Assembly: GCF_036898465.1 (NCBI RefSeq)
Contig: NZ_JARUMJ010000001.1
Coordinates: forward strand, 186,001 to 250,000
Length of the DNA stretch: 64,000 bases
Origin: Streptomyces sp. B21-105
GTDB lineage: Bacteria; Actinomycetota; Actinomycetes; Streptomycetales; Streptomycetaceae
Direction of reading: 5' to 3'
The notes below the pieces were generated by a model. The model was not told the DNA's origin and did no database searches. It saw only the letters and a list, made by a program, of their open reading frames with translations. How positions within the stretch are numbered: the stretch's first letter is position 1; every line of letters begins with the position of its first letter. This document shows, one piece after another, positions 8,101 through 11,100 of this stretch. The position numbers and the translations under genes were made by a program.

Positions 8101-11100
8101 CTGTCCTGCGGACCCACCTCGAACAGCCAAGCCTTGAGCGGTACTTCGGACGAGAAGTCGAAGGTGTGCCCGAGTGCTTCGGCGACTGTGGCGTCCAGTT
8201 CGTCCGCCGTCACCGGCGCCACCCGCAGCTCCCAGTCCAGCTCGTCGATGCCGACGACCCGCTGGTAGGGCTCCCCGTCGGCCACCGGGTACACGGTGCG
8301 CAGCACCTCGTGCCGACCGATCACGTCCCGGAACGCGGCGCCGAGGGCGGCACGGTCCACGCCGCCGGTGAGCCGCAGGGCGAAGGGAATGTTGTACGTC
8401 GTGCTCGGTCCCTCCAACTGGCCGAGGAACCACAGCCGTCGCTGCGCGAACGACAGGGGCAGCCGCTCGGGCCGCTGCCCGGCCGTCAGCGCCGGGCGGG
8501 CCGTGTCCGAGTCGGCCAGGCCGGCCACCAGCTTCGCGACCGTCGGCGCCTCGAACAGCGCCCGCAGCGGCACCTCCACGCCCAGCAGCGATCGCACCCG
8601 GCTGATCAGCTTGATCGCCTGCAGCGAGTGGCCGCCGAGCTGGAAGAAGTCGTCGTCCACGCCGATCCGGTCCAGGCCGAGGACCTGGGCGAACGCCGCG
8701 CAGAGCAGTTCCTCCCGCACGGTGGCCGGTGCCCGTCCCGAGCGCGCCGCGCGCTGCTCCGGATCCTCCTGGTCCTGGTCCTGCGACCGGTCGGCGAAGA
8801 CCAGCTGACCGTCCGTGGTCCACCGGGCCCGGATCCCCGTCGGGTACAGGCGCGATCCGTCCCCGGCGAACGGGTCCGGCACGGACCGCTCCACCTTAAG
8901 CGGCGGGTGCCCCTCATCCGTACCCGTCACATACAGCTCGCCCACGACGTGGGCCGGCACCGGCGCCAGCCACTCGTCCAGCACATGGACCCGGGTGCCC
9001 GGCACCGGCGCCCCGGGGCCCGAGGTGTGGCGGCCGTACGTCTGCGCTGCCGAGTGGCTCCACTCCGACAGGATCCGGCGCCGCTCGGCCGCGTCGAGGA
9101 GGTCCACCTCGCTCAGCCGGGTCCGCGGGGTCCGCGACAGCTGGTCCAGGGCCCGTACGAGACGTGCGGCGAGCCTCTCGACCGATGCCGCGTCGAACAG
9201 GTCCGCGGCGCCGGCCACCGAGCCGCGCAGCCCCGTCGGGGCCCCCTGCGCGTCGAACGACTCCTCCATCGTCACCTCGAGATCGAACTTCGCCGCCGGA
9301 AGACCGGCCGGCACGGCACGGGCCCGTGCTCCGGGCAGGTCCAGCACCGCATCGGCGTTGTTGTGCAGGGTCAGCACGGTCTGGAACAGCGGGTGCCGTG
9401 CCAGCGAGCGGACCGGGGACAGCTGCTCCACCAGCTTCTCGAACGGCACCTCCTGGTGCGCGAACGCCGACAGGCTCGTCTCCCGCACCCGGCCCAGCAC
9501 CTCGCCGAACGACGGGTCGCCCGTCAGGTCGGTGCGCAGCACCAGCGTGTTCACGAAGAAGCCGACGAGGTCGTCCAGGGCCTCGTCCGTACGCCCGGCC
9601 ACATCCGTACCGATGGGGATGTCGGTGCCCGCGCCCAACCGTGCGAGCAGTACGGCCAGCGCGGCCTGCAGCACCATGAACATGGTCACGCCCTCGGCCC
9701 GCGCCACCTGCGCGAGGCGGGCGTGGACCTCCGCCGGAACCTCCAGCGGCACACCGTGCCCGCGGTAGGAAGGCGCCGCGGGACGCGGCCGGTCGGCCGG
9801 CAGCGTCAGCTCCTGCGGCGCGCCGTCGAGCTGCCTTCGCCAGTACGCGACCTGCTCCGCGATCAGGCTCTGCGGATCCTGCTCGTCTCCCAGCAGCTCC
9901 CGCTGCCACAGCGCGTAGTCCGCGTACTGCACCGGCAGCGGCTCCCACTCGGGAGCCCGGCCCGCGCACCGCGCCGCGTACGCCACGGAGACGTCCGCGG
10001 CCAGCGACCCCGTGGACCACCCGTCACCGGCGATGTGGTGGGTCGTCACCACGAGCACCCGCTCGTCGGGCCCGGCCTCGAACAGCCACGCCCGGATCGG
10101 TATCTCCGCGTCCAGGTCGAAGACGTACCGTGAGGCCTCGGCGACCGCGTCGTCCAGCTCGGCCGGCGCCACCTCGGCCACCGACAGCTCCCACACCAGG
10201 TCCTCGGGATCCAGGATGTGCTGGTAGGGCTCGCCGTCGGCGGTGGGGAAGACCGTACGCAGCACCTCATGGCGCCCGATCACGTCCCGCAGCGCGGCGG
10301 CCAGCGCCTCCGTGTCCAGTTCGCCCGATATCCGCAGGGCGACCGGAACGTTGTACGTCGCGCTCGGCCCCTCCAGCCGGCTGATGAACCAGAGCCGCTG
10401 CTGGGCGAACGACAGCGGCAGCCGCTCGGGGCGCTGCGCCGCAGTGAGGGCCGGGCGGGCCGCGTCCGATCCGGACAGGCCGGCCGCGAGCCGCGCCACC
10501 GTCGGCGCCTCGAACAGCGCCCGCAGCGGCACCTCGACACCCAGCACCGTCCGGATCCTGCTGACCAGCCGGGCGGCGAGCAGGGAGTGTCCGCCCAGGG
10601 CGAAGAAGTCGTCGTCCACGCCGATGCCGTCGACGCCGAGGATCCGGGCGAACGCGGCGCACAGGAGTTCCTCCCGCAGCGTCGCCGGCCGCCGGCCCTT
10701 CCCCGTCGCGTACTCCGGGGCGGGCAGGGCGTCGCGGTCCAGCTTGCCGTTCGTCGACAGGGGCAGCGCGTCCAGTACCAGCACTGCCGAGGGCACCATG
10801 TACTCCGGCAGGCGCCGGCCGACGAACCGCCGCGCCGCGTCGGACAGCGCGTCGTCCGCGCCGGGCGTCGCGACGACGTACGCGACCAGACGCCTGTCCC
10901 CCGGGCTGTCCTCCCGCGCTGTCACCGCTGCCTGCGCGATCTGCGGGTGCTCCAGCAGTGCCGCCTGGACCTCGCCCGGCTCGATCCGGAAACCGCGGAC
11001 CTTCACCTGTTCGTCCGCGCGCCCCAGATATTCCAGCTGCCCCTCCGCGTTCCACCGCGCCAGGTCTCCGGACCGGTACATCCGCTCGCCCGGTGCGAAC

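What the first reader, a model, noticed from the sequence alone, without database searches (positions are those of the whole stretch)
8750..9060. Module 8 of NRPS2 has lost its adenylation domain but keeps C and carrier domains
About 300 bases replace roughly 1500; only the part after the substrate pocket is recognisable and its YRTGD core is mutated, while C8 (HHIAGDG) and T8 (GGHSL) look intact and the frame is open. This points to loading of T8 in trans by a separate A or A-T protein, or by a neighbouring A domain, or to skipping of the module. A-less modules loaded in trans are known from ramoplanin and enduracidin synthesis, but a visible, still translated A-domain fossil is unusual and offers a snapshot of how they arise.
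Basis: partly seen in the sequence, partly recalled or inferred. Interest (0 to 1): 0.75.

Follow-up and report, generated by a model that had tools for sequence, protein, structure and literature searches.

The report
Peptide synthetase module loaded in trans
One station of a giant bacterial peptide-building machine has lost all but a stub of the part that picks and loads its amino acid, and is most likely served by a separate loader enzyme, as in the friulimicin family of antibiotics.

Summary
In NRPS2 (window 2112-13613, minus strand) module 8 is C8, a 121-residue linker and T8, where neighbours carry about 1.6 kb. The linker keeps only the A6-A7 strands of an adenylation (A) domain. It is not an assembly error: the same stub occurs in Streptomyces sp. 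ISL-100, Streptosporangium amethystogenes and other genomes. Module 8 is the only A-less one of 25 on five collinear NRPS proteins.

Best explanation: T8 is loaded in trans by an A-T-TE protein (C1:120719-125278, outside the window, beside PALP, ASL-like lyase and TauD genes). This is the published PstA/LpmA ("ATTe") plus CT-module arrangement of friulimicin, laspartomycin and malacidin. A-T-TE and stub module co-occur and lie about 12 kb apart in three genomes. The residue, 2,3-diaminobutyrate or a relative, is inferred.

All 31 compared stubs keep the same strands, though most were found with a stub-built profile. New to me: two residues after the phosphopantetheine serine these carriers have S, Q or K (32 of 34 scored) where self-loaded carriers have L or M (79 of 80); six further or exceptional modules limit this to one loader family. 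Loading itself is untested.

The parts
2112..13613 (-). NRPS2, 3833 aa: C7-A7-T7, C8-[A stub]-T8, C9-A9-T9, C10-A10-T10; no thioesterase
9072..10421 (-). C8, condensation domain of the A-less module, motif HHIAGDGWS intact
   Evidence: 316.4 bits to PF00668; motif; coordinates
8709..9071 (-). 121-residue linker holding the adenylation-domain stub
8928..8996 (-). retained strand block 1 ([24 protein letters not shown]6 region)
   Evidence: alignment to eight intact modules; by loose patterns kept in 31 of 31 stubs
8796..8852 (-). retained strand block 2 ([20 protein letters not shown]7 region; YRTGD mutated to YPTGI)
8517..8717 (-). T8, carrier domain, [12 protein letters not shown] at the second position after the phosphopantetheine serine
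   Evidence: 70.1 bits to PF00550
7101..8462 (-). C9, the downstream condensation domain that would accept the T8-bound chain
13613..33067 (-). NRPS1, 6484 aa, modules 1-6, read as feeding NRPS2

Best explanation
Module 8 is a trans-loaded acceptor module of the friulimicin/laspartomycin/malacidin kind. A separate enzyme, the A-T-TE part of the 1519-residue ORF at G000:C1:120719-125278 in the same cluster, activates an amino acid and holds it on its own carrier. The neighbouring TauD-family oxygenase may modify it there. The residue is then passed to T8, plausibly by the fused thioesterase-like domain, whose nucleophile motif here is GHCAG (Cys). C8 then joins the growing peptide to it. The A domain of module 8 has been cut down to the A6-A7 strands, which no longer hold the substrate pocket and serve at most as a spacer between C8 and T8. 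The residue is probably 2,3-diaminobutyrate or 2,3-diaminopropionate or an oxidised form, because the A-T-TE gene sits with PALP, ASL-like lyase and ATP-grasp genes like friulimicin dabA, dabB and dabC. Shown here: the stub, its conservation, the cassette and the co-occurrence. Inferred: loading, shuttling, the residue and the one-line reading of NRPS1-5.
For: Stub real and conserved. Module 8 is the only A-less one of 25; the other 24 have A domains. Cassette PALP, ASL-like lyase, ATP-grasp/LAL_C2, A-T-TE, TauD in G000 and in the same order in ISL-100, G360, G384, G049 and G026 and 14 of 21 named loci scanned. In 392 Streptomyces genomes, 8 of 15 with a close A-T homologue (68% identity or more) have a stub-module match of 150 bits or more, against 8 of 377 others; Fisher p 5.6e-9, relatedness not corrected. 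Stub module and A-T-TE about 12 kb apart in G360, G384 and G049. In G253 an A-T-TauD protein is the gene directly after the stub NRPS. Of 50 named genomes with the A-T family, 27 had a profile match at E 1e-30 or better and 20 a match of 150 bits or more through stub and T. T8 dN/dS 0.09-0.30 (three pairs). T8 is the only one of 24 scored G000 carriers with a polar residue at Ser+2, a mark found with this A-T family. Published precedent: trans ATTe proteins acting on CT modules (PMC9113097 passages); SyrB1/SyrC/SyrE (PMC8949500 section 14).
Against: No loading was measured. In G000 the A-T-TE lies about 69 kb from module 8, not next to it. Of the 15 genomes with a close A-T homologue 7 have no match of 150 bits: G049 (short stub seen), G213 (partial) and G026, G375, G329, G177, G199. 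Of 50 named genomes 23 had no match: 5 of these (L118, L129, L133, L153, L162) have the full cassette with TauD, 5 have it without TauD, and 13 have a more distant A-T of 61% or less. Among the 15 close homologues the TE nucleophile was read as Cys in 7, Ser in 4 and not read in 4, so a Cys shuttle is not universal. The wider A-T family (55-60% identity) is common in Streptomyces, so presence alone means little. The ATP-grasp and A-T-TE frames are fused in G000 but separate in ISL-100, which could be a sequencing error.
Confidence: 0.75

Rival explanations
1. T8 is loaded by a neighbouring in-line A domain (for example A7, whose pocket I read as Asn from recalled codes, or A9), so one A domain serves two carriers.
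For: Published for capreomycin, where A-less CmnI uses CmnA-A1 (PMC12400406, start of abstract in the listing) and for yersiniabactin (PMC7539972 introduction). The neighbouring A domains are complete.
Against: T8 differs from the 23 other scored carriers of its line at Ser+2; a dedicated A-T-TE exists in the cluster and such genes co-occur with stub modules.
Confidence: 0.1
2. Module 8 is skipped and the peptide passes from T7 to C9, or over an empty T8.
For: The A domain is gone; stub dN/dS is raised (0.71 for G000 against ISL-100).
Against: C8 and T8 keep their active-site motifs and are under purifying selection (C8 0.30-0.32, T8 0.09-0.30 in the three pairs of G000, ISL-100 and L173); the arrangement is kept in these three genomes of two genera.
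Confidence: 0.08
3. Another free-standing A or A-T protein of the genome loads T8.
For: The genome has many other AMP-binding proteins, some with carriers, for example the 671-aa frame at C1:954913-956565.
Against: In the stretch 110-270 kb of C1, PF00501 matches outside the NRPSs were only the A-T-TE and the FAAL-like gene, and the A-T-TE family has the matching distribution.
Confidence: 0.06
4. Assembly artefact: a collapsed repeat between modules.
For: Modules of this cluster are highly repetitive, with A domains of identical score.
Against: The stub is diverged, not a clean join of intact neighbours, and the same stub occurs in other genomes.
Confidence: 0.01

Closest known systems
Friulimicin PstA/PstB, laspartomycin LpmA and its partner, malacidin equivalents (trans ATTe proteins with embedded CT modules)
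   Same: A free-standing A-T-TE protein, an A-less C-T module inside a multimodular NRPS, dabA/B/C-like genes, an AMP-binding gene read as FAAL; G360, G384 and G049 show the order C-A-T, C-T, C-A-T and an E-like domain.
   Different: Here the A-less module is number 8 of 25, not number 2; the ATP-grasp and A-T-TE frames are fused; the line is far longer. The passages seen do not mention an A-domain stub.
Syringomycin SyrB1/SyrB2/SyrC with SyrE module 9
   Same: A-T protein, tailoring of the tethered residue, transfer to an A-less module (PMC8949500 section 14).
   Different: There the shuttle is a separate protein and the tailoring is chlorination; here a TE-like domain is fused and the TauD reaction is unknown.
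WS9326A Cal22/Cal23 trans A-PCP didomains with the A-less module of Cal19
   Same: Trans loading of a C-PCP module in Streptomyces, shown by knockouts (PMC7539972, sections 4 and 6).
   Different: The didomains are described without a TE; different substrates (Thr, Asn).
Ramoplanin and enduracidin A-less modules with stand-alone A-T proteins
   Same: Lipopeptide lines complemented in trans by a stand-alone A-T protein (PMC8949500 section 14).
   Different: Their stand-alone proteins carry a 300-residue N-terminal extension of unknown kind; no TE or dab cassette is mentioned there.
Albicidin Alb04
   Same: An A-T protein in trans complements a dead in-line A domain (PMC8949500 section 14).
   Different: There the dead A domain is still present with poor motifs; here most of it is deleted.
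Gausemycin cluster of Streptomyces sp. B188M101
   Same: Lipoglycopeptide with 2,3-diaminobutyrate at position 6 and PALP and ASL-like genes in the cluster (PMC12471526, passages).
   Different: No A-less module or trans A-T protein was mentioned in the passages seen.

Membership tests
Trans-ATTe / CT-module system (friulimicin, laspartomycin, malacidin) | C-T module without functional A domain embedded in a multimodular NRPS | tested here: met
Trans-ATTe / CT-module system (friulimicin, laspartomycin, malacidin) | Free-standing A-T-TE protein encoded in the same cluster | tested here: met
   Pfam AMP-binding, PP-binding and Thioesterase in the 1519-aa ORF; preceded in frame by ATP-grasp and LAL_C2
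Trans-ATTe / CT-module system (friulimicin, laspartomycin, malacidin) | Homology of the A-T-TE to PstA/LpmA themselves | not tested
   PstA and LpmA sequences were not at hand; the A-T part is 78% identical to one in Streptomyces canus DSM 40017; S. canus ATCC 12237 is called a known amphomycin producer with a PstA homologue; whether the two strains are the same was not checked
Trans-ATTe / CT-module system (friulimicin, laspartomycin, malacidin) | CT module at position 2 of the peptide | tested here: not met
   Position 8 of the line in G000; second module of its protein in G360, G384 and G049
Trans-ATTe / CT-module system (friulimicin, laspartomycin, malacidin) | Transfer of the amino acid from A-T-TE to the CT carrier | not testable with these tools
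   needs an enzyme assay
2,3-diaminobutyrate cassette (dabA, dabB, dabC) | PALP, argininosuccinate-lyase-like and ATP-grasp genes together | tested here: met
   dabA/B/C named in PMC11117518 (passage); that dabC is the ATP-grasp and that the set makes this residue is recalled
SyrC/CmaE-type aminoacyl shuttle | Cysteine nucleophile in the alpha/beta-hydrolase-like domain | tested here: inconclusive
   GHCAG in G000 and six homologues, GHSTG or GHSSG in four, not read in four, of 15; that SyrC and CmaE use Cys is recalled

The most novel reading that the evidence does not exclude
NRPS modules that hand their loading to this A-T family converge on one acceptor design: the A domain is cut down to the same A6-A7 strand unit, kept as a structural spacer, and the carrier changes the residue two positions after the phosphopantetheine serine from L/M to S, Q or K, giving a sequence mark that predicts which carriers are loaded by this family.
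Probability: 0.35. Interest if true: 0.65.

Novelty: new member of a known kind. Interest (0 to 1): 0.48.

Why it matters
It places an odd gap in a 25-module assembly line within a known loading strategy and names the enzyme that should fill it, which makes residue 8 predictable. If the serine+2 mark holds, carriers loaded by this family could be recognised from sequence, which bears on predicting products from gene clusters and on swapping modules. The graded stubs (A domain without its C-terminal lid; without pocket and lid; strand unit only; shorter still in S. cyaneochromogenes) make the question of how A-less modules arise directly testable.

Tried and rejected
A DNA search in plasmid records gave 217 records with partial matches and none with one place covering 80% of the query. 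The 1519-aa ORF was first suspected to be a separate dapdiamide-like pathway (A-T-TE, TauD, PALP, ATP-grasp; recalled; one search was a search listing only); dropped because the cassette co-occurs with stub modules and matches the published ATTe plus dab arrangement. A single origin of the A-less C domains was tested and rejected on 42 rows that I chose from 115 (AU p 1.9e-38), but C domains of one cluster may be homogenised, and the 88-column stub tree does not exclude one origin, so independent loss is likely, not proven. A profile of C end joined straight to T, meant to find A-less modules without a stub, gave three partial and no full-length matches at E 1e-36 in 362 genomes, but it also failed to recover module 8 itself, so it tests only very short linkers; the claim that the strand unit is kept therefore rests on modules found mostly with a stub-built profile and is open to that bias. 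The serine+2 mark is not a mark of A-lessness as such: A-less or partly deleted modules in G256, L180, G341, G229, G374 and G283 keep L or M; for five of these six no linked member of the A-T family was found (L180 was not in that search), and G251 has K without such a member. One cis carrier (G283) is polar. On the C tree the mark follows A-loss in 3-5 of 6 independent pairs and never goes the other way, too few for significance. AlphaFold of stub plus T8 gave mean pLDDT 57.8 from nine window sequences, with strands where A6-A7 lie but too poor for a fold search, so none was run. One search used the wrong reference (ATP-grasp) and was replaced. The name filter for weak A-T matches also acted on ATP-grasp matches.

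Full report
What is there. The window lies in a Streptomyces genome (G000, C1:186001-250000). NRPS2 is one open frame of 3833 residues on the minus strand (window 2112-13613). Pfam finds in it four Condensation, four PP-binding and four AMP-binding stretches but only three AMP-binding_C; the fourth AMP-binding stretch is the stub. Module 8 has C8 at 9072-10421 and T8 at 8517-8717 with 121 residues between them at 8709-9071. Whole-genome searches with PF00668, PF00501 and PF00550 show the same: the other 24 modules of the line have an A domain, and only a 24.1-bit fragment (PF00501 positions 337-376) sits between C8 and T8.

What is left of the A domain. Aligned with eight intact modules of the window, the stub keeps the strand blocks around GELYV (A6) and [19 protein letters not shown] (A7) and lacks A1-A5, with the substrate pocket, and A8-A10, with the hinge and the catalytic lysine (motif names and roles are recalled). 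Here YRTGD reads YPTGI; in the ISL-100 relative it is YRTGD.

It is conserved. A DNA search of 392 Streptomyces genomes found the whole stretch in G085 (73% identity, full length) and most of it in G253 (66%). A profile of C8 end, stub and T8 (alignment A1) found matches running through stub and T domain within about 490-630 bases in 22 of the 392 genomes, and a shorter one in G049. Of 50 named genomes reached through their A-T protein, 27 had a match at E 1e-30 or better, and 20 one of 150 bits or more through stub and T. I extracted 39 modules with fewer than 300 residues between C and T; 5 were the same record twice and 3 had incomplete C domains, leaving 31. By loose patterns all 31 keep the VxVLD-type strand, the GxLY-type strand and the RWxxxG-type block; 26 keep [RP]TG; 6 keep [YH]RTGD; none keeps A3, A5, A8 or A10. 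So the strands are kept and the ligand-binding residues mostly are not. Most of these modules were found with a stub-built profile, so stub-free ones could be missing.

Grades of loss. Three modules (G251, G304, G366) keep A positions 1-179 and about 313-391, having lost pocket and C-terminal lid; G341, G229 and the fragment in G213 look similar; G085:C10, G374 and G283 lack only the lid. L200 from Streptosporangium amethystogenes has a larger, fresher stub with pieces of A1 and A8. G049 has a shorter one with no profile hit.

Is the module alive? Nei-Gojobori dN/dS in 12 pairs of genomes (not independent of each other) is 0.16-0.32 for the C domain, 0-0.39 for T and 0.34-0.81 for the stub; the stub exceeds C in all 12 pairs and its bootstrap interval reaches 1 in 7 of 12. 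For G000 against ISL-100 the values are C8 0.32, stub 0.71 and T8 0.09, with regions of the intact A9 at 0.24-0.27 from the printed dN and dS. So C8 and T8 are used, while the stub changes under weak constraint. A live spacer and slow decay both fit.

Who loads T8? The NRPS proteins NRPS1 to NRPS5 run in one direction, hold 24 A-bearing modules and one A-less module, and show a thioesterase at the end of NRPS5; NRPS2 has none by Pfam. That they form one line is inferred. About 7 kb beyond NRPS5 begins the cassette: PALP, ASL-like lyase, a 1519-aa ORF with ATP-grasp, LAL_C2, AMP-binding, PP-binding and Thioesterase domains, and a TauD gene. The same order stands in ISL-100, G360, G384, G049 and G026 and in 14 of 21 named loci scanned; 6 more have it without TauD and one (L158) has A-T and TauD only (I scanned 21 of the 59 loci). 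In G360, G384 and G049 the A-T-TE is about 12 kb from the stub module, with an AMP-binding gene read as FAAL between them. In G253 the gene after the stub NRPS is an A-T-TauD fusion whose A domain is 53% identical to that of the G000 A-T-TE and at most 38% to the other 20 A domains compared. G096 has its 82% homologue near the start of another contig. G036, G337, G294, G304 and G366 have a family member 8-46 kb from the nearest stub or partial module.

Statistics. Of 392 genomes, 15 have an A-T homologue of 68% identity or more; 8 of these and 8 of the other 377 have a profile match of 150 bits or more (Fisher p 5.6e-9). Relatedness is not corrected for. Against the reading: of the 50 named genomes 23 had no match, and 5 of these have the full cassette with TauD (L118, L129, L133, L153, L162); 5 have the cassette without TauD, and 13 have a more distant A-T (61% or less).

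The literature fits. Baltz 2021 (PMC9113097; passages seen) states that trans ATTe tri-domain proteins, PstA and LpmA, act on CT modules embedded in CAT-CT-CATE proteins in friulimicin and laspartomycin, and that malacidin uses the same mechanism. PMC11117518 (passage) lists dabA, dabB and dabC among the friulimicin-type genes, with cysteine-synthesis and argininosuccinate-cleavage functions in the set. PMC8949500 (section 14) describes SyrB1/SyrC, Alb04 and the ramoplanin and enduracidin cases; PMC7539972 (sections 4 and 6) shows trans A-PCP proteins for WS9326A by knockouts; PMC8748450 (passages) describes CmaE-like and TEII aminoacyl shuttles. The substrate, 2,3-diaminobutyrate or a relative, is my inference from the cassette.

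A carrier mark. Two residues after the phosphopantetheine serine, 79 of 80 carriers with complete cis A domains in these clusters have a hydrophobic residue (L 70, M 9) and one has S, while 32 of 34 scored carriers of A-less or partly deleted modules have S, Q or K. In G000, 23 of 23 scored cis carriers have L or M and T8 has Q. In a wider set of 99 cis elongation carriers from all loci held at that point, 5 are polar. Reading more modules showed that the mark goes with the A-T family and not with A-loss: G341, G229, G374, G283, G256 and L180 keep L or M, and for five of these six no linked family member was found (L180 was not in that search). Counting G251 and G213, which have K by eye, the total is 34 of 40. 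Independent pairs on the C tree: 3-5 of 6 agree, none disagrees, sign test 0.06-0.25. I saw no mention of such a mark in the listing, but only titles and abstract openings were seen there, so I make no claim that it is unpublished.

Origins. On a tree of 115 C domains, A-less modules fall in several groups beside modules of their own clusters, at least 6 changes on well-supported branches, and one clade is rejected on a chosen 42-row subset. Homogenisation of C domains within a cluster could mimic this, and the stub tree (30 of 31 stubs, 88 columns) does not decide.

Verdict. A true, old and, by selection, working A-less module, most likely loaded in trans by the ATTe-type protein of its own cluster: a new member of a known kind in an unusually long line, with two features worth a bench test, the recurrent strand stub and the serine+2 mark.

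Noticed in passing
G000:C1:134589-219067 (window 2112-33067 holds the first part): Five collinear NRPS proteins with 25 modules and a TE at the end of NRPS5, with an AMP-binding gene read as FAAL between NRPS2 and NRPS3: an apparent 25-residue lipopeptide line. ISL-100 keeps the order NRPS2, AMP-binding gene, start of the next NRPS.
   Followed up: partly
G000:C1:160750-161232 and 164285-164666 (outside the window): NRPS3/NRPS4 frames break inside a C domain and near a T-C junction; possible sequencing frameshifts or real breaks.
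   Followed up: no
G000:C1:158756-178978 and 142605-146888: A domains with identical profile scores (one set of three, two pairs) and identical pocket stretches, pointing to recent module duplication.
   Followed up: no
window 33235-36951: P450, FabH-like, carrier protein (about 35489-35686) and FabF-like genes just upstream of NRPS1, a second possible fatty-acid supply besides the FAAL-like gene.
   Followed up: partly
G000:C1:120719-125278 (L001:10719-15278): ATP-grasp and A-T-TE are one open frame here but two genes in different frames in ISL-100.
   Followed up: partly
L115 and G392 (Streptosporangium amethystogenes NRRL B-2639): A-T part 88% identical to that of G000 and three stub-type matches in another genus: possible transfer of the whole cluster, with a second, fresher A-less module (L200).
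   Followed up: partly
G251, G304, G366, G213 (L098, L099, L104, L112): Partly deleted A domains followed by carriers that lost the GG of GGHS but keep a serine (SMKSLRL); G251 has two identical copies of the carrier in a row.
   Followed up: no
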